Of a DNA stretch of 64,000 nt, positions 7,444-60,398 are shown piece after piece. Position 1 is the stretch's first letter; each line of letters opens with the position of its first letter. Source of the stretch: Neolewinella xylanilytica (GTDB taxonomy: Bacteria; Bacteroidota; Bacteroidia; Chitinophagales; Saprospiraceae); the NCBI RefSeq assembly GCF_002934605.1, contig NZ_PTJC01000006.1, forward strand, positions 310,001 through 374,000, given 5' to 3'. Made by a program: the position numbers and the translations under genes. The notes beneath the pieces are model-generated. The model was given only the letters and a program-made list of their open reading frames with translations. It searched no databases and was not told the DNA's origin.

Positions 7444-9663
7444 CTAAAACTTATACCGCACGACTCCGCGCAGCAGGAAGGGGGCACCCGGCGTGAAGTG
7501 AATCTCCTCCACCGGCTGTGTTTCGGAGAACAGCCGCGACTCGGTGGCGAACTGGGTTTCGTTCCACTCCGCATCCAGGGCGTTCTCCACGACCAAACCG
7601 AGGGAAACGGGACCGATGGCGTAGTTGACATTGGCGTCGAGGATGAAGTAGCCCTCGGCGACGATGGAATTGTCTTCGTTGGCCGGCCGGTTCGCTACGT
7701 AGCGGTAGCGCACGCCGCCGGTCCACCGGCTGTTGAGGACGTTCAGGCCGCCGGAACTGGTGAGGTCGGGCGCCAGGGGAATGTAATCAGCTCCCTCGGG
7801 TTCACCGATGCTGCGGGCGAAGGCGTAGTTCAGGTCGGCGTCGGCGAAGAGCCAGTCGGTCAGCTGATAGCGGGCGCTCAGGTCCACCCCGAGGCGACGG
7901 GTTTCCCCGCTGGGCTCCACGATGCCGGCGTCGCCTACGTATACGAATTCCTGCTCCAGGTAGAGGTACCAGAGTGCGGCGTTCAGGAACAGACGGCCGG
8001 TGGGCCGGAAAATGCCTCCCAGATCGGCGCCGTAGGCCGCGGGCAGAATTTCGGCGGCCGACTGGTCGAGTACGACCCGGGTATCGTTGGCATGGAAGCC
8101 GACGCCCGTTTTCAGGAACAGCTGGGTGCGATCATTCAGGGTATACAGGAAGTTCAATTTGGGGCTGACGGCGGTTTTGCGCTGTTCCTGGCGGTCGTAG
8201 GTGGGTTGGAGTTTATCGACGTAATTGAAGACGAAGTGGTCGAGGCGAACGGCGGGGTTGATCAGCAGGTCCCCGAACTCGAAATCGGCACCGGCGTAGG
8301 CGAATAGATTGCTTTCGTCGATGTCGCCGTACTGGATCCGTTCCAGCAGCTCTTCGCGGTTGCGGGTACGGCTGAGCTCCACGTCGTCGTTGTTGTCGTA
8401 GCGGAGGCCAATGCCGCCTTTGAGGCTGGCTTCGCCGCCGCCGGTGGTGAAGGCGTGGTTGACTTCCGACTGGAAGCCAAAGATCTCCCGGTCTTCGGAC
8501 TGGCGGATCTGATCGCCGTTCACCGGGTCTTCGAGGAAGAAGGTGAAATTGGAGAACAGCTCGAAGTCGTAGCGGGAGTAATAGGCGTTGGTTTTAATGA
8601 AGGTACTGCGGTTGACGACGCGCAGGAACTCGCCCGCCAGGTTGGTCCGGCCGGTGTAGCCCCCCTCCGTGTCGTCGATGGCTCCGAAGCGACCGATCAA
8701 TCCGCTTTCCACCGCCCGTACCGGTATCTGCCCCGAAGCATCCCACTTGCTTTCGAAGTGGCTGGCCAGGAGCGAGAGCTTACTGCCGCCCGGAAGTTCG
8801 GCGGTGTAGCGACCCATGAGGTTTAGGCGGTTGAAGTGCTGGCTGGACTCGAAGGGACCGTCGGTGAGGATGTACTCCGTTGCCAGGTAAGCACTGCTGC
8901 GCTCGTTGTTGAGCAGGTCGAAAAGGCCCACGGCCCGCAGGGTGTTGAAGGAGCCGACCTCGGCCGTCAGTAGCGAGCGGTCGAGTTTGTCCTTCAGGGA
9001 GAAGTCGACGTAGCCGGCGGTGGCGAAGTTGCCCTGGTCGGCGTAGTAGGGCCCCTTGCCGTAATCGATCTTCTCGATGGTTTCCGGGATGAGGAAGTGG
9101 AGATCGGCGTAGCCCTGCCCGTGGGCGTGGCTGACCATATTGACCGGCATACCCTCCACGGAGATGGCCACGTCGGTGCCGTGGTCGATGTCGAAGCCCC
9201 GCAGGAAGATCTGCTCCGCTTTCCCGCCACCGGCGTGCTGGCCGATGATCATGCCCGGTACGCGGCGCAGGATATCCTGGGCGGAATTCACCGGCCGCAG
9301 CCGGGAATCGATGTCGGTGGCGACGTTAAGCGAGCGAAGGTCGGGACGCACGGTGATGGCGTCCAGGTCGAAGAAACTTTCTTCCAGCTCCACCTCCATG
9401 AATTCGTCGGCAGCGGGTACTTCGATTTTTTGCGCCCGGTAACCAAGGTAGGTGACCTGCAGGCTATCCCCCGGGGCGACCCCGTCCAGCATGAAGTTGC
9501 CTAGCTCATTCGTATGGGTGTGATGCTCGGAATTGAGGTGAATGATGTAGGCCCCGATGATCGGGGAACGATCGGCGCTCAGCACGCGACCCTCTACCGT
9601 CTGTGCGGTCAGTCCGGTAGCGAAGCAGGCGGTCAGGAAAAACAGGTAGATGCGTTCAGTCAT
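7444..9663 (-). CDS. TonB-dependent receptor linked to the NRPS operon
   Basis: 739 residues: a signal peptide (ending TGLTAQ), a carboxypeptidase-regulatory-like beta domain (residues ~22-100, GRVLSADRSPIIGAYI), a plug domain (~110-220) and a 22-strand-type barrel ending in VRYKF. The plug has a His-rich block, FDIDHGTDVAIS then SHAHGQGYADLHF, which could contact a metal complex. The gene starts only 23 bases after the end of NRPS1 and has the same orientation, so it is very likely co-transcribed. Receptors co-encoded with NRPS genes usually import the metallophore made by the cluster; that role here is inferred. Confidence 0.9.
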   Translation of the reverse strand: MTERIYLFFLTACFATGLTAQTVEGRVLSADRSPIIGAYIIHLNSEHHTHTNELGNFMLDGVAPGDSLQVTYLGYRAQKIEVPAADEFMEVELEESFFDLDAITVRPDLRSLNVATDIDSRLRPVNSAQDILRRVPGMIIGQHAGGGKAEQIFLRGFDIDHGTDVAISVEGMPVNMVSHAHGQGYADLHFLIPETIEKIDYGKGPYYADQGNFATAGYVDFSLKDKLDRSLLTAEVGSFNTLRAVGLFDLLNNERSSAYLATEYILTDGPFESSQHFNRLNLMGRYTAELPGGSKLSLLASHFESKWDASGQIPVRAVESGLIGRFGAIDDTEGGYTGRTNLAGEFLRVVNRSTFIKTNAYYSRYDFELFSNFTFFLEDPVNGDQIRQSEDREIFGFQSEVNHAFTTGGGEASLKGGIGLRYDNNDDVELSRTRNREELLERIQYGDIDESNLFAYAGADFEFGDLLINPAVRLDHFVFNYVDKLQPTYDRQEQRKTAVSPKLNFLYTLNDRTQLFLKTGVGFHANDTRVVLDQSAAEILPAAYGADLGGIFRPTGRLFLNAALWYLYLEQEFVYVGDAGIVEPSGETRRLGVDLSARYQLTDWLFADADLNYAFARSIGEPEGADYIPLAPDLTSSGGLNVLNSRWTGGVRYRYVANRPANEDNSIVAEGYFILDANVNYAIGPVSLGLVVENALDAEWNETQFATESRLFSETQPVEEIHFTPGAPFLLRGVVRYKF

Positions 9664-9686: not shown

Positions 9687-12600
9687 TTAAATCTCCCCTT
9701 CGGTCTCGGCCAATAAGCGGGTAAGGGTTTCTTCCAGGTATTCGCCCTGCAGGGCAATGGTCGGCAATTCGAAAACACGGTGCAGCGGAACCTCCAGCGC
9801 GAAGGCGTCGCCGATACGGGCCGACAGGCGAATGGCCGTAAGGCTGTGCCCGCCGAGGTCGATGAACTGATCGTGGCGACCCACCCGCTCCAGATGGAGT
9901 ACGTCCCGCCAGATGTTGGCGAGCAGTTCCTCGATTTCCCCATCGGGAGCTTCGTAGGCCACGTTCTCCGTAGCGGGTCGACCGCCTAACGCGGCCAGGG
10001 CCGAACGGTCGATCTTGCCGGAAGCCGTCAGGGGCATGTCCTGTAGCGGAAGGAAAAGCTGGGGAATGCTGTAGTCGGGAAGGTGGCGCTGCAACCGTTG
10101 TCGCAGGGCGTCGGGGGTGAGGTCTTCTCCTCCGGTGTAATAAGCTACGAGCTGGCGGCGATCGTAGTTTTCCCCGGGGTGATGATACCCGATTTCGCCC
10201 ATGATTTTCTGTACTGCCTCGGTATCTACCTCCTCATTGATCTCTTCCAGGGCGGCGTCGCGCTGCTTGTGCCCGATGCGTACGTCCCAGCTGTAGGGAA
10301 AGGCGTAGTTGTTATAGCCCTTTTCTTTTTTGTGGACGTAAATGCCCACCTGGTTGATCAGGCAGTTGGTGGAGCGGCCGGTGTCCGTGGGGCGTACCCA
10401 GGGAAGGCGGCGGTCGAGGTAGGCGTACATCTCGTCCAGCGTGGCGTCGGTGTAGCGGTAGAAATCGAGGAAGCGCACCCGCTCGAAGACGTCGTCGGTC
10501 TCGAAGGCGGAGGTATCCAGGAGTTTGCGTACGGCGTCGTCCGCACGATGATACATCTTCCGGGCCTCCAGGATGGCGGCGTCGATGCTGCCCTCGGCGT
10601 GGCGGTCTTCCCAGAAGAGCTCCTCGGTGAGGCGGGTCTCAAAGAATTGTCCGCGGCTCAGCCCGGTGACGATGTAGGGGATATTCTTCTCCAGCGCCAC
10701 CTGGGTGCTGAGGGTATAGATCGTTTTGAAGCAACCGTTGCAAACGTTACAGTGGCGGTACAGGCTGTCGACGAAAATTTCGTTCATGGCTGGCGTGCTG
10801 CCGAAGTGGACGTCGACGCCCAGATCGGACGCCACCCGCCGCACGTTATCCAGGGCCTGCTCCGAGATGTAGCCGTTATCGAGGGTGAAGGCGAGCGGCT
10901 TCAGTCCCAGTTCGACCAACTGGCCCAGGGCGTAGGTACTATCCTTTCCGCCGCTGAGCAGCATGATGCAGTCGTACTCCGTACCGTGCTGGCTGGGCCG
11001 CTCGGCGAAGATGGCGCGGAAGTCGTCGAGGGTGCGGAAGTAGGCCTTAGCCTTGGATTCATAGGCTTCGAAGCCCCGGCACAACTGGCACACCCCCTCC
11101 TCGTCGAAAGAAGCACTGGGGTAGTTGGCGGGCAGTCCGCAGTTGGTGCAGTAGTGATCGACCGGTGCCTGCGACCAGGCGGTCGGGTCGACTAGCTCCA
11201 CGGCGGCGGTGGCAATACCCGGCTGGGCGGCTAGCAGGTGCTCTACCTCCTCGAGTTCGATGCGGTAACCGCGCCACTTGGTCTGCCGATCGTTGCGGCC
11301 CAGGAATTCCAATTCCCCGCGGTCGTTTCGCCGGGCCCGGTCGCCGGTGCGGTACAGGCGGTCGTCCGATCGATAAGGGTGATCCACGAAGCGGGACGCA
11401 GTCAGGTCCGGCCGCCGGTAGTAGCCGTGGGCCAGGCAGCTTCCCCCCAGGTACAATTCGCCGGCCATACCGTCGGGCACCAGCTGCCCCCCCTCGTCGA
11501 GTAGAAGGGCTTCGGTATTATCGATCGGTCGCCCGATCGGCACGGCCCCACTCCGGTCATTCGCCGGGGAAAAGCTTTTTTCGATGCAACCGACGGTAGC
11601 CTCCGTAGGACCGTATTCGTTAATCAGTTCCGCACCCACCGGAAAGTTTGCCGTCACCTCGCGTGCCAGGTCGGTGGATAGTTGTTCGCCGCCCACGATG
11701 AGGGTGGAAATCCGGGCGTGACGGTAATCCCGGCCGCGCAGCAGCGCCAGGTGAGAGGGGGTGAGTTTTACCACGTCGCAGCGGTCGTCGTCCAGTACCC
11801 GCAGCACCGCCAGATCGGGCGTACCGGGTGCCGGTTCCGGATACACGATCACCCGGCCACCACACACCAACGGCGTGAACAGCGAGGTTACCGTCAGGTC
11901 GAAGCCGACGGTAGTGAACAGCGGGAAGACCGGCGCCGCGGTGGTCACGTAACGGCGGCGGGCGTAGGCGATGTAGTTGGCCAGGGAGGCGTGACCGACC
12001 ACCACTCCCTTAGGCGTACCCGTGCTCCCGGAAGTGTACATAATATATGCGGGGGCGTCACCTGGTTGGTGGATGCCTACCGTGGGGTCGTGCCGCAGGA
12101 TGGCCGGCCGGTCCGCATCGAAGAGCACCGTAGGGATCGCAAAGGCTTCTACCCGCGGATAACGCTCCTGGTCGGTGAGGATCAGCGCGCATCCGGTTTC
12201 GCCCAGGATGTGCTCCAGTCGGGCGTCGGGACTATCCGTGGGCAGGGGGAGGTAGGCGTGCCCGGCTTTCCAGCAGCCCAGTATGCCGATCAGCAGATCG
12301 GCGGAGCGGGGAAGTAAGAGGGCCACGTTCTTTCCGGCCTCGCGGAGCCTGCCCCGGAGGAAAGCGGCCAGCCGGCCGGATTCTTCGTCGAGCTCCCGGT
12401 AGGTCAGCTGCCGGTCGGGGCTTTCAATGGCGATGGCGTCCGGCGTCCGGTCGGCTTGAAGTCGGAAGGCAGCCAATACCGAAGCGGGCCTTTCCGCTAC
12501 GTTTTTCCCTTGCCCGGCGGCCAACAACCTTTGCCGTTCGGCCTTTCCGAGGATGTCGATATTGTCGATCGCCCGGTTCGGATGGCTCGTCATTGCATCG

Positions 12601-13817
12601 AGCAGGCGGAGGAATTGATCGGCTACCTTATCACGGTCCGCGGCGGGGAAGACGGCCTCGTTCAGGTCGAATTCGAGTGTCAGGCGGCCCGTCGCATCCA
12701 GATCATGGACCTGCAAGCGGAGGTGGTGGCCCGGATCGGCGTGGCCGGGAGAGCGCCAGCGGGTACGGCAGCTAATGGTGGGGGATAATGCGCCGAATTC
12801 CGCCGTAATGTAATTCAGTACGACGTTAAAGGAGGCGGACAAGCGCGGACGAATTACGCCAGGGCGGGCCGAACGCAGGAAGTCGTTGCCGCTGGTCTTT
12901 AGTCGGCCGAGCAAGTCGAGGAAGGTATCGCCGGCGGCCACCGAGCCGTACAGCGGAAGCATTTCGATCAACTGGGCGGGGAGGCGGCGTTCTTCGGCCG
13001 TGCCGCGGTTGCCGGCGGGAGTGCCGAATGCGATCGCACGTTCTCCGGAGATTTTGTGGACGTAGGCCGTAAGCAGGGTGCCGAAAATATTGAACAGGGT
13101 CATGCCCCGCGTCCAATGGCGAATGCCGTCCCGTTCGGCGAGGGCCAGCAGGGCTTTCGTGCGGTCGGCGTCCAGGGTAAGGGATATGCGCGGTGCGATC
13201 GATGTACCCCCGGCATTTCCGCGCCCCAGCAGGCGGGGCGGTACGGGGTCGACGGCTCGGTCCCAGTATTCGGGTAAGGATACGGGTTCGGAGGGTAGCC
13301 GCTCGCGGTACGTTTGAAAGGAAGGAAGTTGGTCGGAAGGCGTTGCTCCCGCGCCCCGCTCGCCCGCGTAGATTTCCACCAAGCGCCGGTACTGTACGCT
13401 CACGCCCCAGGCGTCCACGATGAGGTGGTGCTGGTTGAGGAAGAAGACGTGGTGGTTTTCGGCGAGTTGCCAGAGGACGGCATCAACGCAAGCCGTGTCC
13501 AGGTTGAATAGTTCCTGGCCCCGTGCGGCGATCTCCCCTTCCAGCGCTTCGCGGCTCCCCGGCCAGGGCGTGACGGCCAGCTCAACCAGGGCGGTAGGCA
13601 GCACCTCCTGCCGGGGCTCGCCGTCGTGGGTACGAAAGACCGTTCGCATATTGTCGCACTCCGCCGTCAGTGCACCGTAGGCCGCACGAAAGCGATCGAT
13701 ATCTAGCTGGCCCCGCAGTTCGAAGGTGAAGATGCAGTGATACTGCGGCGAATTCGGCGCGAGGTGCTGGCCGGTCCATAGTACGAGCTGGGCGGGGGTG
13801 AGGGCGGCGGGACTCAT
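9687..13817 (-). CDS. NRPS1: C-A-T with a PP-loop domain inside A
   Basis: 1376 residues. The C domain (~1-430) has an intact HHLIVDAWG motif (His130, His131, Asp135). The A domain starts at ~445 (TSGSTGTPKG at ~595-604). The pocket reads D-L-T-K-I-G-E-V-G-K, an Asn-type code. After motif A8 (YRIELEEVE, ~851-859), residues ~885-1222 form an inserted ATP pyrophosphatase: CTNCGLP and CQLC (Cys890, 893, 910, 913), the PP-loop SGGKDS (955-960), and CNVCNGC (1023-1029). The A domain resumes with LPDYSIP and the catalytic Lys of TASGKID (Lys1268). The T domain follows (LGGHS, Ser1325). The inserted part resembles N-acetyl-sugar amidotransferases and thioamide-forming PP-loop enzymes. There is no thioesterase. 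The start overlaps the carrier-protein stop (ATGA). Confidence 0.93.
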   Translation of the reverse strand: MSPAALTPAQLVLWTGQHLAPNSPQYHCIFTFELRGQLDIDRFRAAYGALTAECDNMRTVFRTHDGEPRQEVLPTALVELAVTPWPGSREALEGEIAARGQELFNLDTACVDAVLWQLAENHHVFFLNQHHLIVDAWGVSVQYRRLVEIYAGERGAGATPSDQLPSFQTYRERLPSEPVSLPEYWDRAVDPVPPRLLGRGNAGGTSIAPRISLTLDADRTKALLALAERDGIRHWTRGMTLFNIFGTLLTAYVHKISGERAIAFGTPAGNRGTAEERRLPAQLIEMLPLYGSVAAGDTFLDLLGRLKTSGNDFLRSARPGVIRPRLSASFNVVLNYITAEFGALSPTISCRTRWRSPGHADPGHHLRLQVHDLDATGRLTLEFDLNEAVFPAADRDKVADQFLRLLDAMTSHPNRAIDNIDILGKAERQRLLAAGQGKNVAERPASVLAAFRLQADRTPDAIAIESPDRQLTYRELDEESGRLAAFLRGRLREAGKNVALLLPRSADLLIGILGCWKAGHAYLPLPTDSPDARLEHILGETGCALILTDQERYPRVEAFAIPTVLFDADRPAILRHDPTVGIHQPGDAPAYIMYTSGSTGTPKGVVVGHASLANYIAYARRRYVTTAAPVFPLFTTVGFDLTVTSLFTPLVCGGRVIVYPEPAPGTPDLAVLRVLDDDRCDVVKLTPSHLALLRGRDYRHARISTLIVGGEQLSTDLAREVTANFPVGAELINEYGPTEATVGCIEKSFSPANDRSGAVPIGRPIDNTEALLLDEGGQLVPDGMAGELYLGGSCLAHGYYRRPDLTASRFVDHPYRSDDRLYRTGDRARRNDRGELEFLGRNDRQTKWRGYRIELEEVEHLLAAQPGIATAAVELVDPTAWSQAPVDHYCTNCGLPANYPSASFDEEGVCQLCRGFEAYESKAKAYFRTLDDFRAIFAERPSQHGTEYDCIMLLSGGKDSTYALGQLVELGLKPLAFTLDNGYISEQALDNVRRVASDLGVDVHFGSTPAMNEIFVDSLYRHCNVCNGCFKTIYTLSTQVALEKNIPYIVTGLSRGQFFETRLTEELFWEDRHAEGSIDAAILEARKMYHRADDAVRKLLDTSAFETDDVFERVRFLDFYRYTDATLDEMYAYLDRRLPWVRPTDTGRSTNCLINQVGIYVHKKEKGYNNYAFPYSWDVRIGHKQRDAALEEINEEVDTEAVQKIMGEIGYHHPGENYDRRQLVAYYTGGEDLTPDALRQRLQRHLPDYSIPQLFLPLQDMPLTASGKIDRSALAALGGRPATENVAYEAPDGEIEELLANIWRDVLHLERVGRHDQFIDLGGHSLTAIRLSARIGDAFALEVPLHRVFELPTIALQGEYLEETLTRLLAETEGEI

Positions 13818-14062
13818 ACTTTCTGCACGGCTTGACGTTCGCGGACGTAATCGCTCATCGCACGGACCGTCATGAAGTGATCGATGGTCATCTCCTCGGG
13901 CGGAATGCGCACCGAAAAGCTTTTTTCGAGAAAGTCGATGAGGCGAAAAACGGCCATCGAGCCGATCAGCCCGCTGCCGAGCAGGTCGTCGTCGGCCGTC
14001 AGGTCGATCCGGTCGTCATCGATGAGTTCGCGTTTGATAAAGGTGAGGATACGTTCTTCCAT
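13814..14062 (-). CDS. Stand-alone peptidyl carrier protein
   Basis: 82 residues, four-helix carrier protein. The phosphopantetheine Ser is predicted to be Ser35 in SGLIGSMAV; the residue before it is Gly, where the family usually has Asp. It lies between the prolyl-AMP ligase and NRPS1 and overlaps NRPS1 by 4 bases. Together with ligase and oxidase it forms the three-part pyrrole-2-carboxyl cassette known from pyoluteorin (PltF/PltE/PltL) and prodigiosin pathways, so its cargo is predicted to be prolyl, then pyrrolyl. Confidence 0.88.
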   Translation of the reverse strand: MEERILTFIKRELIDDDRIDLTADDDLLGSGLIGSMAVFRLIDFLEKSFSVRIPPEEMTIDHFMTVRAMSDYVRERQAVQKV

Positions 14063-15634: not shown

Positions 15635-16810
15635 CTACAGGCCGGTAAGTTGAGCAATGATGTTTCGCTGAATATCGGAGGTGCCGGCATAGAGTACCCC
15701 GCCCACCGCGTCGCGCAGGTCGCGTTCGGTACCGAAGTCGGTCAGGTAGGCGTTGCCGCCGCCGATGCGGATAGCGTCCAGACTTGACTCGACGAACGCC
15801 TCACTTAGGTACAGCTTCAGCATGCTGGATTCGATCATGCTGGGCTGGCCGTTTAGCTTGAGAGAGGCCAGTCGGTACAGCAGTAGCCGGGAAATCTCGA
15901 TCCGCATCCGCATGTCGGCGATGCGGTTGGATACCGATTGGAATTCCCCCACGGCTTTGCCGAACTGCTTCCGCTTTTTAGCAAATGTTACGGCTTCTTC
16001 CAGCTGGCGTTGCATGGTGCCGAGCTTGCCCGACAGGATGCAGCAACGGTCGTACTCCAGCGAATGGTTGCAGATGCTGAAGCCGGCACCTTCCTTACCG
16101 ATGCGGTTTTCTTCCGGCACGAAGCAATTTTCGAACGTGATCTCCCCGAAGGGGGCGGTACGCAGGCCCATTTTTTTCCGGTTCGGGCTGGCGGTATATC
16201 CCGCTGAATCCGCGTCCACGAGAAAAGCGGTGATCCCCCATTTACCCCGTTCCGGAGCGGTGCTGGCGAACACGACGGCCACGTCGGCCACGGGTGCGAG
16301 GGTGACGAGGCGTTTGCCGCCGTTCAGCCGGTAGCCACCGTCGAGTTTTTCGGCGGTAGTGGTCAGCGTGAAGATGTCGGACCCACTCTCCGTTTCGGTC
16401 AGGGCGTGACAGCCGAAAAGCTGCCCTTTGACCATGCCGGGCAGATATTTCGCCTTTTGGGTTTCGGTGCCGAAGAGGGCAATGGTCGACTGCACCGCCC
16501 ACATTTGTGCATTGAGGGCCAGGACCAGTCCGGTATCGGGGCAGGCGTAGCCCAGGGCTTCCATCGCCACGACGGAGCGGAATACATCTAATTCGTCCTG
16601 CTGTCCGCCGTACGCCGCGGGGGCCGCCAGCCCCTGGATGCCGAAGTCGGCGCACTTTTGCCAGCCTTCACGCCAGAAGGTGCCCTCGGCGTCGCGGGTA
16701 ATGACGTCGTCCTGGAGCTCCCGACGGGCAAAGTCAATGACCGTTTCCCGGTAATCGAGGTAGGCTTGGGGTAGGGTAAAATTGACGGGTGGTTCGTGGC
16801 GGTAGTTCAT
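15635..16810 (-). CDS. Prolyl-carrier oxidase, acyl-CoA dehydrogenase family
   Basis: 391 residues from the ATG at 16810, which overlaps the OCD stop (ATGA). Acyl-CoA dehydrogenase motifs are clear: CHALTETESGSD, the FAD/substrate domain, RKQFGKAVGEFQ and the C-terminal GGVLYAGTSDIQRN. In the last motif the Glu that is the catalytic base of many acyl-CoA dehydrogenases (YEGTS) is Ala, as expected for the PltE/AnaB/RedW branch, which uses a base nearer the middle (here around SLEYDRCCI). Predicted reaction: four-electron oxidation of prolyl-carrier to pyrrole-2-carboxyl-carrier. Context supports this over fatty-acid oxidation. Confidence 0.87.
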   Translation of the reverse strand: MNYRHEPPVNFTLPQAYLDYRETVIDFARRELQDDVITRDAEGTFWREGWQKCADFGIQGLAAPAAYGGQQDELDVFRSVVAMEALGYACPDTGLVLALNAQMWAVQSTIALFGTETQKAKYLPGMVKGQLFGCHALTETESGSDIFTLTTTAEKLDGGYRLNGGKRLVTLAPVADVAVVFASTAPERGKWGITAFLVDADSAGYTASPNRKKMGLRTAPFGEITFENCFVPEENRIGKEGAGFSICNHSLEYDRCCILSGKLGTMQRQLEEAVTFAKKRKQFGKAVGEFQSVSNRIADMRMRIEISRLLLYRLASLKLNGQPSMIESSMLKLYLSEAFVESSLDAIRIGGGNAYLTDFGTERDLRDAVGGVLYAGTSDIQRNIIAQLTGL

Positions 16811-17907
16811 GTGCGGGCGGTTGCAGTGGTGCGCACGGGGATCGCTTCGGCTTCGGCACTGAGGAAGTGGTACGGATTCGTGGCGTCCCCGCTCATATTT
16901 TCGATCTCGAGGTATTCGCCCAGGCTCAGTTCGGCGGCCATTTCGGCGAAGAGGCGCAGGACAACCTGGTCCTGCAACGACCAACCCGTAGAGTCGTATA
17001 CCGTCAATTCCTCCCGCAAATGGTGGTACGCCACGGGGTTCTTGCACACGGCTACGATGTCGTCGCCGATGTATCGATCCTCCAGGCGCTGGCATTCGCC
17101 CTCTAGTACGGCCTGGGGCCGGAAGTCCGGACAAACGAAGGCGTGTTGCAGCAGACTCAGCGGGAGTTCGGTCTTGCCGGGGAAGTCGGATCCGATGGCG
17201 TTCACGTGCAGGTGGGGGCGGTGGGGGAGAACGTCGAAGAGGGGACCTGCTCCCACGTCGATAGAGGTAGCCGTCAGGAGGATGTCGGCCGACTTGAGGA
17301 TGTCAGGCAGGGTGGAAAGCTCAATATCCGCGACGGTGTCGAAGTGCCGGCAGCGATCGGCCAGGCTGCCACTTGCCTGGCCGTCGACGTCGTAGATCAG
17401 GATCCGGTCGAAGGCGTAGTACAGCGACAGCGCGTGTACGTGGGCTACGGCCTGTGCTCCGCAGCCGATCAGTCCCAGGGTGCGGCTGTCGGGATTAGCA
17501 AACTGCCGGGTGGCGATGACCGAAGCGGCCGCCGTGCGCATGGCCGTTGGCAGCACGCCGTCCATGATGCAACTCAGGTGACCGGTGGCCGTGTCGTAGG
17601 CCGAAATGGTGGATACGATGGTGGGCAGTCCGTAGACCTCCGGGTTTTTCGGGTGGTAGCCGACGACCTTGATGGTGACGTCGCGTCCGCGCTCGTGGAT
17701 CGGCATCCATTCGACCAATCCGGGGTGGGGAGTATCGTAGTGAAAACCGCTCCTGGTCGGGGTGACCGTACGCTCGGCATCGTGGGCCATCATGGTCTTT
17801 TCGAGGCGGCTTACCAGCCGGCGCATGACGCTATCCAGCCCAAAGTGGGCCAGGGTCTGTTCGACCACCCGACGGGTGAGCACGAGGGTAGTGGGGGCGG
17901 GGTGCAT
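16807..17907 (-). CDS. Ornithine cyclodeaminase family protein
   Basis: 366 residues. The Rossmann motif LGLIGCGAQAVAHVHAL and the upstream MDGVLPTAMRTAAAS are typical of the ornithine cyclodeaminase/mu-crystallin family. As the first gene of the minus unit it probably supplies L-proline from ornithine for the pyrrole unit. A SbnB-like role in diaminopropionate synthesis is possible, but the partner SbnA-type synthase is not present in the window. A weak promoter-like pair (TTTG, then ACCCTTTG) lies just upstream. Confidence 0.85.
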   Translation of the reverse strand: MHPAPTTLVLTRRVVEQTLAHFGLDSVMRRLVSRLEKTMMAHDAERTVTPTRSGFHYDTPHPGLVEWMPIHERGRDVTIKVVGYHPKNPEVYGLPTIVSTISAYDTATGHLSCIMDGVLPTAMRTAAASVIATRQFANPDSRTLGLIGCGAQAVAHVHALSLYYAFDRILIYDVDGQASGSLADRCRHFDTVADIELSTLPDILKSADILLTATSIDVGAGPLFDVLPHRPHLHVNAIGSDFPGKTELPLSLLQHAFVCPDFRPQAVLEGECQRLEDRYIGDDIVAVCKNPVAYHHLREELTVYDSTGWSLQDQVVLRLFAEMAAELSLGEYLEIENMSGDATNPYHFLSAEAEAIPVRTTATART

Positions 17908-19378: not shown

Positions 19379-22300
19379 ATGAGCAAATCGTCCTTATTAA
19401 GTAAATGGCTGAACCGGAAAAAGACCTCCGTTGATCCGCCACCCGAATCTGCCGCCCTTACCGGCGATTACCCCGCCTCGGCCGGGCAACAGCGGCTGTG
19501 GGTACTTTCCGAGCTAGCCCCGGATAACCCGTTCTATCATTACGCCGAACAGTACCGTATCCGTGGAGCGGTGGACGTGGCCATGCTGCAACGGTCCTTT
19601 ACGATTGTTTTCGCCCGGCACGAAATTTTGCGGACCACTTTCTACGGCACGGAGTCCGGGGTTCGCCAGCGCGTAACCCCCGGCCCCGGTTTCAGCTGGG
19701 AGTACCACCCCGCACCGCTGGCGGAAGCGGAAATCCTCGCCCGGGCCAAACGTCCCTTCGATCTTCGCAACGGACCGCTGACGCGTATTCGGTTGGTTCG
19801 CCTGGATGCCGACGATCATCTACTGATGGTAAGCCAGCACCACATCATTACGGACAAACAGTCGATGCGGATTCTCTGCGAGGAAGTTGCTGCGGCCTAC
19901 ACGGCCCTGCGGCGGGGTGAGCCGGTTGACGGTACGCCAATCCCGCAGCAGTACGGGCAATTCGCCAGTCGGCAGTTGGGGGAAGTATCCGACACCTCCT
20001 TGCGTTACTGGCAGCGCCAACTCGCGGACGCGCCCGCCATGCTGGATCTGCCTACCGATTATACCCGTCCCGCTCAGCAATCCTACCGCGGCCAGTACGC
20101 GGAAGCATCCCTTAGCGCGGCGGTGACCAGAGCGATCCGCGAGCGTAGTCGGGAGGCGTCGGTTACGCCTTATGTCTACCTCTTGTCCGCTTACCTGGTC
20201 TTGCTCTATCGCTATTCCGGTCAGGCCGATCTGCTGGTCGGCACGCCGGTTTCCAACCGCGATTCAGTGGAGCAGGAGCGGCTGATCGGTTTTTTCAACG
20301 AGACACTGGTTGTTCGAAATGTCCTTCGCCCCGACATGCCGTTTTCCCATTTGGTGGCGGAAGTGCAAAAGACCGTACTGGAGGCCTTCGCCCACAAAAA
20401 GGTAGCCTTTGACGCCGTAGTGAAGGCCCTGAATCCGGAGCGCCGGGCGGGTGCCAATCCCCTGTTTCAGTCCATGTTCATCCTGCACAAGGTGCCCGAA
20501 CCAATGGAGCTGGAGCCGGGCGTGCAGTTGGAAAGCCGCTCCCTCGACCTCGGGGTCACGAAGTTCGACCTGACGCTCTACGTAGCCGATCAGGCGGAAT
20601 GCTTCACCTACATTTTCGAATACGCCACCGACCTGTTTACCGCCGAACGGATCGAGCGGATGCTCGGCCACTTCGCCCGGATCGTACAGCAGGTCGGGAA
20701 GAGCCCGAGCGTCCCCGTCGGTACCATTCAACTGCTGACCGCGGCGGAATGGCCGGCGGCCCCGGAGCCTGCACTACCTACGCCGGATTTGGTGGACCGG
20801 CAAATCCTCGATATCGCCGCCCGGCATCCGGAGCGGGTGGCTGTAAGTGGTGGCGGTCAGGCGCTCACGTATGCTGACTTAAGCGACCGGTCCTTCGCCC
20901 TCGCCCGGCACCTTCACCGTCGGGGCGTCCGGTCGGGTGACATCGTCGGCTTACAGGTTGACCGGAGTGTATACGCGATCGTTGGAATCCTGGGTATCCT
21001 CCGGGCCGGTGCCGCTTATCTGCCGCTGGATCCGGCTTATCCCGAAGCACGGCGCCGCTTTATGATTTCGGATAGCGGCGCAAGTCTTATCGTGACCGGG
21101 GCGGACATCGCCGATCTCGACCTGACTGATACCGGACCATTGCCGACGGTCGATCGTGATGCGGACGAGCCTGCTTACCTCATTTACACTTCTGGCAGCT
21201 CCGGTCAGCCGAAGGGAATCCAGGTCAGTCACCGGAACCTGGCGTACAGCAACGCCGCGCGGTGGGAAGTGTACGGCGGAGCGCCGCAGGCGTTCCTGTT
21301 GTTGTCCTCTTTCTCCTTTGATAGCTCGGTAGCGGGAATTTTCTGGACGTTGTGCGGCGGCGGTAAGCTGGTCATTTCCGGGGAACGGTCCGAGCAGGAT
21401 CCGATGGCCCTTGGTAATTTGATCCGCCGGGAGTCCGTCAGTCATACGCTGTTGTTGCCCACCCTGTACCGGCAATTGCTGGAGTTTGCCGAACCGCGGC
21501 AGCTGGGATCCTTATCAACCGTCATCGTCGCGGGGGAAGCCTGTACCCCGGCTACCGTAGCCCGGCACTTTGAGCGGTTGCCCGCCGCCTCGTTGTACAA
21601 TGAATACGGTCCGACGGAAGCTACCGTCTGGGCGACCGTCCACCGGATCCGGGCCGGGGCGAACGAAGGCCCCGTTCCCATCGGGGAGGCGATCCCCCAC
21701 TACCAGGTTTACCTCATTGACGGGAACGGTCAACTCGTCCCGGAAGGCGTCGTCGGCGAGATCGTCATCGGTGGCGCAGGATTGACCGCCGGCTACTGGA
21801 ACCGACCGGAGCTGACCGCGGAACGGTTCACGACGCTATCCTTGCCGGATGGCCGTTGCCCGCGGGTGTACCGGACCGGGGACCTCGGCCAACAACGGCA
21901 AGACGGGGCAATCATGTATCTCGGACGGCAAGACCGGCAGGTGAAGATCCGGGGGTACCGGGTGGAGTTGGGGGAAGTGGGCAGGCAACTGCTGGAGCAC
22001 CCCGCCGTGCGTGAGGCCGAGGTGGTGGTGAGCCCGGCGGGGAGCCAATTGATCGCCTACGTAGTGGGGAGCGAGGCAATCGATACCGACGCGTTGACCG
22101 ATTGGCTCCGGGACCGCACGCCAGCCCATCAGTTGCCCTCCCGCCTTGAGGTAATGGATGCGCTTCCCCGCCTGCCCAACGGAAAGGTAGACGTGCGTAA
22201 ATTGGCGGAAACGGCGCCCGATCGCAACGAGCCGGTCACCGAAGGCCAAACGCCGCCGGCGAACGACACCGAAGCAGCCCTGCTCGGCATCTGGCGCGAA

Positions 22301-23833
22301 GTACTCGGCCAGGAACGTATCGGCGTGACCGATAACTTCTTCTCCCTGGGCGGCGATTCGATCCTGAGTATCCGCATCCTGTCGCGGGCCCGGCAGGCGG
22401 GCATCGAATTGCCCGCCACCGCCATCTTCGACCGGCAGACCATCCGGGAGCTTGCCACCGTAGCTATCCAGGCGGAACGGGCTATGGACGCCGACCGTGA
22501 TTACTCCGGCCCGGTGCCGCTGACGCCCATCCAGCATTGGTTTTTCGCCGAGCACCGCAGCGCCCCCCACCATTGGAACCATGGCTGGTGGATCGAACCC
22601 GTGGAGGAAACCGCCATCGATCGCATCCGCGAAGCCGTCGGGCAACTGTACGACCGCCACGATGCCCTGCGGCAGCAGTTTTTCCGCAGCCCAACGGGCG
22701 AGTGGACGGCCCGCACTGCTCCGGCCGGAGTCACGGTACCCTTCGAGCGCCGTCGGGTCGGCGAGCCGGATTTGGCGGACGCACTCCACCGCTTTCAGGA
22801 CGGGATCGACCTCGACCGGGATCCCCTTTTCCGCGTCATCGTTTTCGAGGGCGCCGATGCTTTCCGGGTACTGGTATGGGCCCACCACCTGGTGGTCGAC
22901 ATGGTGTCGTGGGACGTGATTCTGCCAAGCCTCACCGGGCAGCGGGACGCAGGAGGGACCCCTTACCATTACTGGGCCGATCAACTGACTACCTGGGCGA
23001 GAACGGGGAAATTCGAGGGGGAGCGGGGCTTTTGGGAAAGCCAGCAAGGGGGGGCGATCCGTACCGATCTTTCCGGACAATTGCCGGTGCGGCAATCCAG
23101 CGTGGAGACCGTGGAGGCCCGTGTATCCGCATCCGTTACCGCCGCCTTACTCCAAAACGCCAACGATGCCTACGGTACCCGGCCGGAAGAACTGCTGATG
23201 ACGGCGATGCTACGCGTCACCCGCCCCTGGTTCGACGGCCCGGATCAGTGCATCAACCTCGAGCGACACGGCCGGGAGCCCCTCGACGGCGGCCTGGCGG
23301 TGGGAGAAACCCTTGGCTGGTTCACGACCGCCTACCCTTTGACGTACCGGCTGTCTGGCACCGACATCGGAAAGGACATCGTCGCCGTAAAGGAAACCTT
23401 CCGCGCCGTTCCCAGCCAGGGCATCGGCTACGGGGTCCTGCGCTACCTGGCCGGGTACGAGGAACTGCGGCAGCAGCCCGCCTTGTACTTCAATTACCTC
23501 GGGCAGGCCGGTTTGGGAAAGCCGCACGGTACCCCGCCGCCCCGCTTCGTGGCGGAGGGGCTCCGTTCCCCGCGGGGGGAGGTCAACCGGGTTTGGGAAA
23601 TTAACGCCCGGGTAGAGGACGGTGAGCTAGTCTTCACCTGGTCATTTAGCCACGCCCTGCACCACCGTGCCACAGTCGTTGCGCTATGTAATGAGCTGGC
23701 AAAGGCGGTGGAAACCATCGTTCAATACTGTCAATCCCGCGAACAGCAGCAATTCACCCCCTCCGATTTTCCGGAAGCCTCGCTCAGCCAGGACGATCTG
23801 GAAGGATTGCTCGGCCAATTAGATGTAGAATGA
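19379..23833 (+). CDS. NRPS2: C-A-T-E module, His-like substrate code
   Basis: 1484 residues. C domain (~28-445) with HHIITDKQS (His154, His155, Asp159; the usual Gly after Asp is Lys). A domain (~470-940) with TSGSSGQPKG, YRTGDLG and LPNGKVD. The pocket reads D-S-A-L-I-A-E-V-W-K, closest in my memory to the His-type code of bacitracin synthetase (DSELTAEVCK). T domain with LGGDS (Ser994), the form typical before epimerisation domains. E domain (~1045-1480): PLTPIQHWFF, HHLVVDMVSW (His1170), LERHGRE, GWFTTAYPL and NYLGQ. It should add one residue and present it as the D-form to NRPS3, whose start overlaps its stop by 4 bases. Confidence 0.9.
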   Translation: MSKSSLLSKWLNRKKTSVDPPPESAALTGDYPASAGQQRLWVLSELAPDNPFYHYAEQYRIRGAVDVAMLQRSFTIVFARHEILRTTFYGTESGVRQRVTPGPGFSWEYHPAPLAEAEILARAKRPFDLRNGPLTRIRLVRLDADDHLLMVSQHHIITDKQSMRILCEEVAAAYTALRRGEPVDGTPIPQQYGQFASRQLGEVSDTSLRYWQRQLADAPAMLDLPTDYTRPAQQSYRGQYAEASLSAAVTRAIRERSREASVTPYVYLLSAYLVLLYRYSGQADLLVGTPVSNRDSVEQERLIGFFNETLVVRNVLRPDMPFSHLVAEVQKTVLEAFAHKKVAFDAVVKALNPERRAGANPLFQSMFILHKVPEPMELEPGVQLESRSLDLGVTKFDLTLYVADQAECFTYIFEYATDLFTAERIERMLGHFARIVQQVGKSPSVPVGTIQLLTAAEWPAAPEPALPTPDLVDRQILDIAARHPERVAVSGGGQALTYADLSDRSFALARHLHRRGVRSGDIVGLQVDRSVYAIVGILGILRAGAAYLPLDPAYPEARRRFMISDSGASLIVTGADIADLDLTDTGPLPTVDRDADEPAYLIYTSGSSGQPKGIQVSHRNLAYSNAARWEVYGGAPQAFLLLSSFSFDSSVAGIFWTLCGGGKLVISGERSEQDPMALGNLIRRESVSHTLLLPTLYRQLLEFAEPRQLGSLSTVIVAGEACTPATVARHFERLPAASLYNEYGPTEATVWATVHRIRAGANEGPVPIGEAIPHYQVYLIDGNGQLVPEGVVGEIVIGGAGLTAGYWNRPELTAERFTTLSLPDGRCPRVYRTGDLGQQRQDGAIMYLGRQDRQVKIRGYRVELGEVGRQLLEHPAVREAEVVVSPAGSQLIAYVVGSEAIDTDALTDWLRDRTPAHQLPSRLEVMDALPRLPNGKVDVRKLAETAPDRNEPVTEGQTPPANDTEAALLGIWREVLGQERIGVTDNFFSLGGDSILSIRILSRARQAGIELPATAIFDRQTIRELATVAIQAERAMDADRDYSGPVPLTPIQHWFFAEHRSAPHHWNHGWWIEPVEETAIDRIREAVGQLYDRHDALRQQFFRSPTGEWTARTAPAGVTVPFERRRVGEPDLADALHRFQDGIDLDRDPLFRVIVFEGADAFRVLVWAHHLVVDMVSWDVILPSLTGQRDAGGTPYHYWADQLTTWARTGKFEGERGFWESQQGGAIRTDLSGQLPVRQSSVETVEARVSASVTAALLQNANDAYGTRPEELLMTAMLRVTRPWFDGPDQCINLERHGREPLDGGLAVGETLGWFTTAYPLTYRLSGTDIGKDIVAVKETFRAVPSQGIGYGVLRYLAGYEELRQQPALYFNYLGQAGLGKPHGTPPPRFVAEGLRSPRGEVNRVWEINARVEDGELVFTWSFSHALHHRATVVALCNELAKAVETIVQYCQSREQQQFTPSDFPEASLSQDDLEGLLGQLDVE

Positions 23834-60155: not shown

Positions 60156-60227
60156 TAGCCCGTAGGGGAATCGAACCCCTCTTACCAGGATGAAAACCTG
60201 GCGTCCTAGCCGATAGACGAACGGGCC
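60156..60227 (-). tRNA. tRNA-Glu (TTC), copy 1
   Basis: 72 bases without encoded CCA. Acceptor GGCCCGT pairs with ACGGGCT, the anticodon stem-loop is CCAGG-TTTTCAT-CCTGG with TTC, and the T arm GAGGGGTTCGATTCCCCT is intact. It differs from the next copy by one base in the D loop (GGCTAGG here, GGTTAGG there). Confidence 0.95.
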
Positions 60228-60257
60228 GGGAGGAATAGTAGGAAGTACGTAGCACTT

Positions 60258-60297
60258 TAGTACGGTAGGCGGCCAGGCATGCAAGCCTACCGTACTA
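60258..60297 (-). other. Hairpin in the spacer between tRNA-Glu genes
   Basis: TAGTACGGTAGGC (60258-60270) pairs with GCCTACCGTACTA (60285-60297), a perfect 13-bp stem with a 14-base loop. It may guide processing of the tandem transcript. Confidence 0.45.
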
Positions 60298-60326
60298 CTA
60301 TACTATCTACTCCCGTACTAAAGAAG

Positions 60327-60398
60327 TAGCCCGTAGGGGAATCGAACCCCTCTTACCAGGATGAAAACCTGGCGTCCTAACCGATAGACGAACGGGCC
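60327..60398 (-). tRNA. tRNA-Glu (TTC), copy 2
   Basis: Same fold and anticodon as the 60156 copy, 72 bases, no encoded CCA. It is transcribed first on the minus strand. Confidence 0.95.

What the first reader, a model, noticed from the sequence alone, without database searches (positions are those of the whole stretch)
10150..11166. PP-loop ATP pyrophosphatase embedded inside an NRPS adenylation domain
The A domain of NRPS1 is interrupted between motifs A8 and A9 by about 340 residues with a PP-loop (SGGKDS), an N-terminal zinc-type C-x2-C/C-x2-C pair and a CNVCNGC cluster. Known interrupted A domains carry methyltransferase, ketoreductase or oxidase domains at this place. PP-loop enzymes of this type transfer sulfur or nitrogen to adenylated carbonyls (tRNA thiolases, sugar amidotransferases, thioamide enzymes such as those proposed for closthioamide). 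An embedded one suggests on-line thioamide, nitrile or amide formation on the loaded residue. I know of no described case.
Basis: partly seen in the sequence, partly recalled or inferred. Interest (0 to 1): 0.92.

Follow-up and report, generated by a model that had tools for sequence, protein, structure and literature searches.

The report
Asparagine-dehydrating insert inside an NRPS
A peptide-making enzyme of a marine bacterium carries a built-in domain that probably turns asparagine into a nitrile; this kind of insert is already known from two antibiotics, but here it belongs to a widespread, uncharacterised gene cluster that may make a metal-scavenging compound.

Summary
The 1376-residue ORF 9687-13817(-) is a C-A-T NRPS module whose A domain is interrupted between A8 and A9 by an intact PP-loop (AANH-type) domain, residues ~887-1214 (10176-11159). 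It is not an assembly artefact: the same fusion recurs in Bacteroidota, Acidobacteriota and cyanobacterial genomes and a roseobacter plasmid, and the insert is the best conserved part of the protein. 'No described case' is wrong: it fits the AMDH domain (amide dehydratase/aminomutase) of cystobactamid CysH and albicidin AlbIV, which sits in asparagine-specific A domains; on CysH it turns carrier-bound L-Asn into beta-cyanoalanine (-18 Da). The window's A code, DLTKIGEVGK, is published as compatible with cyanoalanine. Two points go beyond what I found in print: an invariant CxxC...C triad (C1026, C1029, C1152) spaced much as in the [4Fe-4S] thioamide synthetase CtaC, which could explain CysH's brown colour; and a recurrent cluster with a His-activating NRPS, HupE permease and, in Bacteroidota, a TonB receptor, often with a cyclodeaminase, prolyl-carrier dehydrogenase and solo A: perhaps a nitrile-bearing metallophore. 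New member of a known kind.

The parts
9687..13817 (-). NRPS1, C-A[AMDH]-T module, 1376 aa
12498..13805 (-). Condensation domain, residues 5-440 (end inferred), with HHLIVDA
11199..12467 (-). A-domain core, residues 451-873; code DLTKIGEVGK (Asn / cyanoalanine)
   Evidence: code meaning from PMC12283262
10176..11159 (-). Inserted PP-loop (AANH, AMDH-type) domain, residues 887-1214
   Evidence: TIGR03573 123.8 bits; conserved in 56 aligned sequences; model pLDDT 87.9, pTM 0.88
10938..10955 (-). PP-loop SGGKDS, residues 955-960
   Evidence: invariant in 56 of 56 aligned sequences, window included
10731..10742 (-). C1026-x2-C1029, proposed first two ligands of an Fe-S cluster
   Evidence: invariant in 56 of 56; HMM alignment places them on the CxxC of TtuA 5mko, weak overall match E 0.11
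10362..10364 (-). C1152, proposed third cluster ligand
   Evidence: invariant in 56 of 56
10014..10154 (-). A-domain C-terminal subdomain, residues 1222-1268, with A10 SGKIDR
9738..9926 (-). Carrier (T) domain, residues 1298-1360
13814..14062 (-). Stand-alone carrier protein, 82 aa
   Evidence: PF00550 24.3 bits
14065..15690 (-). Stand-alone A domain, code DIFYLGVQC(K); proline-like by recall of PltF/AnaC-type codes
   Evidence: an L-prolyl-carrier ligase (6o6e) is among its PDB matches but not the best one
15635..16810 (-). Prolyl-carrier-protein dehydrogenase-like flavoprotein (start inferred from homology)
   Evidence: best PDB match 4irn prolyl-ACP dehydrogenase, 374 bits; Pfam Acyl-CoA_dh
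16807..17907 (-). Lysine/ornithine cyclodeaminase
   Evidence: best PDB match lysine cyclodeaminase 300 bits, ornithine cyclodeaminase 126 bits
18136..19374 (+). HupE/UreJ_2 membrane protein, possible metal permease
   Evidence: PF13795 147 bits; found in 61 of 80 loci
19379..23833 (+). NRPS2, C-A(His)-T-E; code DSALIAEVW(K)
   Evidence: code meaning from PMC12283262
23830..26181 (+). NRPS3, C-T-TE
7444..9663 (-). TonB-dependent receptor
   Evidence: PF07715; found in 61 of 80 loci

Best explanation
The insert is an AMDH-type domain. The A domain activates L-Asn and loads it on the T domain of the same module; the PP-loop domain then binds ATP, adenylates (or phosphorylates) the side-chain amide oxygen of the carrier-bound Asn, and loss of the activated oxygen gives carrier-bound beta-cyano-L-alanine (a nitrile), with isoasparagine as a possible side product. 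The C domain joins it to an upstream acyl group made on the stand-alone carrier protein (cyclodeaminase makes proline or pipecolate, solo A loads it, the dehydrogenase oxidises it to a pyrroline/pyrrole type ring), and NRPS2/3 add His (epimerised) and release the product. Shown here: domain order, Asn code, conservation, gene set. Shown in print on CysH: Asn to cyanoalanine. Inferred: that this homologue does the same, the order of assembly and the starter, that the CxxC...C triad holds a [4Fe-4S] cluster that helps catalysis, and that the product is a metallophore.
For: Place, length and motif match the published domain: ~330-340 aa AANH insert in an Asn A domain with SGGKD (vs passages). A code DLTKIGEVGK in 69 of 79 sequences, the other 10 differing at one position; PMC12283262 gives this code as compatible with cyanoalanine. 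PMC7966384 reports that AMDH homologues found by BLAST were all inserted into Asn-specific A domains, the same pattern. On CysH, Asn loading (+114) became +96, i.e. -18 Da, and this was not seen without the AMDH domain. No HisH/HisF-type ammonia source and no hydroxylase was seen among the 15 window ORFs scanned with Pfam. Insert and A-core distances correlate (Spearman 0.81; 0 of 200 permutations reach it).
Against: The CxxC...C triad is typical of sulfur-inserting AANH enzymes (CtaC, TtuA), which could mean thioamide chemistry. In cystobactamid and albicidin the domain sits in a stand-alone A-T module; here it is in a C-A-T module. One of the 7 genomes with the fusion first found in the family (G106) has a stop in the A core. 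The cluster is accessory: among the genomes listed for the window's own genus, 6 have it and 15 do not. The distant Streptomyces homologue is not inside an A domain. Against the metallophore part: 0 of 6 cyanobacterial, 0 of 5 acidobacterial and 0 of 1 actinomycete-titled loci match the window's TonB receptor within the DNA held, and no TonB receptor is listed around the Roseovarius copy in PLSDB's incomplete table.
Confidence: 0.72

Rival explanations
1. Aminomutase: the domain mainly isomerises carrier-bound Asn to isoasparagine, as CysH does after beta-hydroxylation.
For: Same domain family does it in cystobactamid (PMC7966384).
Against: That reaction is favoured by the hydroxylase CysJ; no hydroxylase was found among the window ORFs scanned. 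Without CysJ the isoAsn product was much less abundant in print.
Confidence: 0.15
2. Thioamide synthetase: an Fe-S dependent AANH domain replaces the side-chain amide (or new peptide amide) oxygen by sulfur, like CtaC, giving a soft metal ligand.
For: Triad C1026/C1029/C1152 invariant in 56 of 56; spacing D959 to C1026 67 and C1029 to C1152 123, against 77 and 127 in CtaC (D77, C154, C157, C284); HMM alignment places the CxxC on that of TtuA, though the overall match is weak (E 0.11); HupE and, in Bacteroidota, a TonB receptor suggest metal binding.
Against: The described in-A-domain relatives make cyanoalanine or isoAsn; the insert is tied to Asn-code A domains; no sulfur-carrier gene seen among the window ORFs scanned, though CtaC's cluster lacks a sulfur-mobilisation enzyme too.
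Confidence: 0.09
3. Amidotransferase: it makes an amidine with ammonia, like WbpG/PseA-type N-acetyl sugar amidotransferases.
For: Nearest named profile is TIGR03573.
Against: Score 128.7 is far below the family cut-off 203.2; no HisH/HisF among the window ORFs scanned; the CxxC...C triad is present in only 4 of 13 stand-alone WbuX-like ORFs read.
Confidence: 0.02

Closest known systems
AMDH domain of cystobactamid CysH (PMC7966384)
   Same: AANH-type domain with SGGKD inserted into an Asn-specific A domain; homologues reported in BGCs of unknown products.
   Different: CysH is a stand-alone A-T module that hands its residue over by CysB and works with hydroxylase CysJ and methyltransferase CysQ; here it is a C-A-T module in another kind of cluster. 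Sequences not compared.
AANH insert of albicidin AlbIV (described in PMC12283262 and PMC8949500)
   Same: 342-residue AANH insert in an Asn-activating A domain, with DLTKIGEVGK given as a cyanoalanine-compatible code; proposed Asn to beta-cyanoalanine.
   Different: Stand-alone A-T module acting in trans; a gyrase-inhibitor pathway. Sequence not fetched.
CtaC thioamide synthetase (PMC6772006)
   Same: AANH enzyme acting on carrier-bound substrates; CxxC plus distant Cys with nearly the same spacing.
   Different: Separate protein, acts on backbone amides, needs sulfide; here embedded and Asn-linked.
N-acetyl sugar amidotransferase WbuX/TIGR03573
   Same: Zn-type C-x2-C pairs, PP-loop, overall profile match.
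   Different: Below the curated cut-off; mostly separate proteins of about 380-410 aa; 9 of 13 read lack the triad.
Methyltransferase-interrupted A domains (PMC11355689, passages)
   Same: Insertion between A8 and A9.
   Different: Different inserted enzyme; the held main text of that review does not contain AMDH, albicidin or cystobactamid.

Membership tests
AMDH (amide dehydratase/aminomutase) domain | Inserted in an NRPS A domain | tested here: met
   78 of 80 loci have the A-core motif upstream in frame
AMDH (amide dehydratase/aminomutase) domain | Host A domain Asn-specific | tested here: met
   DLTKIGEVGK in the window and 69 of 79 in all, by code only; meaning from PMC12283262
AMDH (amide dehydratase/aminomutase) domain | AANH domain of about 342 aa with SGGKD motif | tested here: met
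AMDH (amide dehydratase/aminomutase) domain | Sequence homology to CysH or AlbIV and the seven core motifs of the 2021 paper | not testable with these tools
AMDH (amide dehydratase/aminomutase) domain | Asn to cyanoalanine or isoAsn activity | not testable with these tools
   needs enzyme assay
CtaC-type thioamide synthetase | [4Fe-4S] triad CxxC plus Cys ~125 residues on | tested here: met
   C1026, C1029, C1152 invariant in 56 of 56; CtaC positions from PMC6772006. Presence of residues only, not of a cluster
CtaC-type thioamide synthetase | Separate protein acting in trans on PCP-bound peptide | tested here: not met
   embedded in the A domain
N-acetyl sugar amidotransferase (TIGR03573) | Score above curated cut-off 203.2 | tested here: not met
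   128.7 bits
N-acetyl sugar amidotransferase (TIGR03573) | HisH/HisF-type partners (recalled; such partners are annotated beside a sugar amidotransferase) | tested here: not met
   none among the 15 window ORFs scanned
NRP metallophore cluster | Linked TonB-dependent receptor and inner-membrane metal permease | tested here: inconclusive
   both present in the window and each found in 61 of 80 loci at my limits, but no match to the window's TonB receptor in the 6 cyanobacterial, 5 acidobacterial and 1 actinomycete-titled loci within the DNA held
NRP metallophore cluster | Product binds a metal, metal-regulated expression | not testable with these tools
   no riboswitch reached its gathering score in the window; that says little

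The most novel reading that the evidence does not exclude
AMDH is a [4Fe-4S]-dependent member of the AANH superfamily: the invariant triad C1026/C1029/C1152 binds the cluster that made CysH brown, and it either helps expel the activated amide oxygen (nitrile) or, when sulfide is present, makes thioasparagine. The cluster around it makes an unknown (dehydro)prolyl-cyanoalanyl-D-histidyl metallophore shared by marine Bacteroidota, cyanobacteria, Acidobacteriota and roseobacter plasmids.
Probability: 0.25. Interest if true: 0.75.

Novelty: new member of a known kind. Interest (0 to 1): 0.48.

Why it matters
The published AMDH work ends with the mechanism unknown, a brown protein and no structure. 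The conserved cysteine triad and the CtaC/TtuA comparison give a concrete, cheap hypothesis (iron-sulfur AANH) that point mutants can test. The recurrent cluster points to an uncharacterised natural product, probably with a nitrile or isoasparagine next to histidine, made by many marine bacteria and possibly used to fetch a metal; no paper on such a cluster turned up in my searches of the held open-access library, which lacks most subscription journals.

Tried and rejected
Considered and rejected: misassembly or chance fusion (same architecture in many genomes); sugar amidotransferase function (score below cut-off, no ammonia source among the scanned ORFs); a phage origin (no match in 50,697 phage records). 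First working idea was a CtaC-like thioamide chalkophore; it was demoted to a rival once PMC12283262 led to AMDH. The Rfam scan gave only two tRNAs. Paper searches of no use: 15 (no paper), 8 (one unrelated paper).

Rows dropped before counts: two of 80 loci (L099, L100), whose A core is not in the same frame; three of 80 (L099, L100, L157), because the ORF before the PP-loop was too short; ORFs under 800 aa, matches under 300 aa, and A domains next to SGGKD, 43 loci were tried and 13 gave a usable ORF of 200 aa or more with SGG[K/R]DS (L016 and L060 are one gene, so 12 distinct); the tool kept the best 80 of 247 relatives, so all counts 'of 80' are for the nearest ones. In one search my A10 pattern found 68 of 80; A core and A10 patterns were both found in 66 of 80. 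PCP counts may include T domains of larger proteins and are not used. Presence counts depend on bit-score limits I set (HupE 61 there, 63 by tblastn). On re-reading, the missing TonB matches outside Bacteroidota made me lower the odds of the novel case from 0.3 to 0.25 and call that membership row inconclusive.

Full report
OBSERVATION. ORF 9687-13817(-) encodes 1376 residues. Pfam gives Condensation, AMP-binding (451-800), AMP-binding_C (1222-1268, just under its cut-off) and PP-binding (1298-1360). NCBIfam TIGR03573 (WbuX) fills the gap at 888-1206 with 123.8 bits, E 1e-35, below its cut-off of 203.2. Residues 885-1222 are bases 10152-11165. The insert follows A8 and precedes A9/A10, whose lysine motif (SGKIDR) is kept (motif names recalled). 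AlphaFold2 with an alignment of 49 sequences models residues 880-1216 with mean pLDDT 87.9 and pTM 0.88, with alternating strands and helices in its PP-loop half; residue 1026 starts a helix that also holds 1029, and 1152 lies three residues before another helix. No fold comparison was obtained.

DISTRIBUTION. In 398 genomes of the window's family the profile of seven inserts found 45 with any match. Twenty-two of these score far above the rest (about 225-660 bits a piece): 18 in frames of 1272-1482 aa, G106 with a stop in the A core, and three genomes (G186, G241, G300) with pieces of the insert only. The other matches, mostly stand-alone WbuX-like frames, reach at most 89.9 bits. In 395 genomes of the phylum only the window's own and G595 score in the high range; in 92 genomes of G595's family, G595 and G814. 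A scan of genome contigs reported 247 relatives and kept the best 80, among them Lewinella, Neolewinella marina, Flavilitoribacter, Zobellia, Maribacter, Arenibacter, Algoriphagus, Rhodohalobacter, Acidobacteria MAGs, Leptolyngbya, Adonisia and Crocosphaera. Of these 80, 78 have the A-core motif upstream in frame. Plasmids of Pseudohalocynthiibacter and Roseovarius carry the domain at 56-58% identity and a Streptomyces plasmid a 39% homologue; in Roseovarius it lies inside the first A domain of a 2682-aa NRPS. No phage record matches.

CONSERVATION. Against the window, the insert is 56-73% identical in five relatives while the A core is 35-46% and C 21-37%. Over 78 proteins the medians are 0.66 (insert), 0.45 (A core), 0.36 (C); insert and A-core distances correlate (Spearman 0.81, 0 of 200 permutations reach it). 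So the fusion is probably old and kept as a unit, and the insert is under strong constraint.

SPECIFICITY. The A code read by motif is DLTKIGEVGK in 69 of 79 sequences (window plus 78 loci); the other ten are one-residue variants. PMC12283262 (passages) discusses this code in its Asp/Asn section as compatible with beta-cyanoalanine too. The second NRPS has DSALIAEVW(K) in 31 of 40 sequences, window included, the rest one-residue variants; the same paper lists it under His.

WHAT IT IS. PMC12283262 and the review PMC8949500 (passages) describe a 342-residue AANH insert, with SGGKD, in albicidin AlbIV, whose A domain prefers Asn, and report the proposal that it makes cyanoalanine in place. PMC7966384 (abstract, section 7 part 2, passages) names the homologous CysH domain AMDH, shows -18 Da on CysH-bound Asn that is absent without the domain, shows by deletion that isoAsn formation needs it, and states that BLAST homologues are all inserted in Asn-specific A domains of clusters of unknown product. 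The window fits each described feature that I could test. I could not compare sequences with CysH, and did not fetch AlbIV.

MECHANISM. C1026, C1029 and C1152 are invariant in 56 of 56 aligned sequences, including the 40% Streptomyces homologue; C1023 is not invariant. CtaC, a [4Fe-4S] AANH thioamide synthetase, uses C154, C157 and C284 with D77/S78 in its ATP motif (PMC6772006, parts 1 and 2 of 3): gaps of 77 and 127, against 67 and 123 here. The HMM alignment places C1026/C1029 on the CxxC of TtuA 5mko, though the overall match is weak (E 0.11). CysH was brown, and its authors report no CxxCxxxC motif. I therefore propose, as inference, a [4Fe-4S] site. Of 13 stand-alone WbuX-like ORFs read, 13 keep the four zinc-type cysteines but only 4 have the triad, so the triad is not unique to the embedded form. 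With no hydroxylase among the scanned ORFs, nitrile formation is the likeliest outcome; isoAsn and thioamide remain rivals.

CLUSTER. Minus strand: cyclodeaminase (best PDB match lysine cyclodeaminase, 300 bits), dehydrogenase (best match prolyl-ACP dehydrogenase 4irn, 374 bits), solo A (code DIFYLGVQC), 82-aa carrier, NRPS1, TonB receptor. Plus strand: HupE, NRPS2 C-A-T-E (second Condensation-type domain with HHLVVDMVSW, read as E from recalled motifs), NRPS3 C-T-TE. In the 80 loci, at my limits, TonB receptor 61, HupE 61, solo A 57, dehydrogenase 38, cyclodeaminase 32; 61 of the 80 have 20.5 kb or more, so some absences are contig ends. HupE/UreJ proteins are linked to nickel or cobalt uptake (PMC4284471, passages). 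Many flavobacterial loci lack the cyclodeaminase and dehydrogenase and have other solo-A codes, so the starter varies. Outside Bacteroidota the TonB receptor was not found: 0 of 6 cyanobacterial, 0 of 5 acidobacterial, 0 of 1 actinomycete-titled loci, although HupE is there in 11 of these 12. A metallophore is a natural reading for the window but is not shown, and the missing receptors count against it as a general rule.

NOVELTY. The domain and its fusion are known; this is a new member. New as far as my ten paper searches show: the cysteine triad as an explanation of AMDH, and the HupE/TonB/His cluster.

Noticed in passing
L174:18071-22121 (Streptomyces sp. NBC_01216 plasmid): The 39-40% homologue is not inside an A domain: it forms a separate 726-aa protein with a partial Condensation domain, next to a complete A-T protein and an annotated asnB.
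   Followed up: partly
L030:12224-14403; L172 and L173:1-5304; L116:14508-15248; L134:14420-15160: Some clusters lie beside surface-polysaccharide genes: NeuB and UDP-GlcNAc 2-epimerase in L030, sugar amidotransferase/HisF/HisH/NeuD on the roseobacter plasmids, CpsB_CapC in two flavobacteria.
   Followed up: no
L172, L173: Two plasmids from different genera (one typed conjugative) share protein accessions across most of the flank of the cluster, suggesting recent transfer.
   Followed up: no
L116, L107, L109, L137 and similar flavobacterial loci: Solo A domains with other codes (DPFYLALLC, DPFYFALLC, DQFFRGSRC) and no cyclodeaminase or dehydrogenase match nearby: probably a different starter acid.
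   Followed up: partly
L072, L075, L077, L080, L090: WbuX-like PP-loop domains in the C-terminal half of 609-680 aa frames, all five with SGGRDS instead of SGGKDS and without the CxxC...C triad.
   Followed up: partly
window 60156-60398 (-): Two tRNA genes close together.
   Followed up: no
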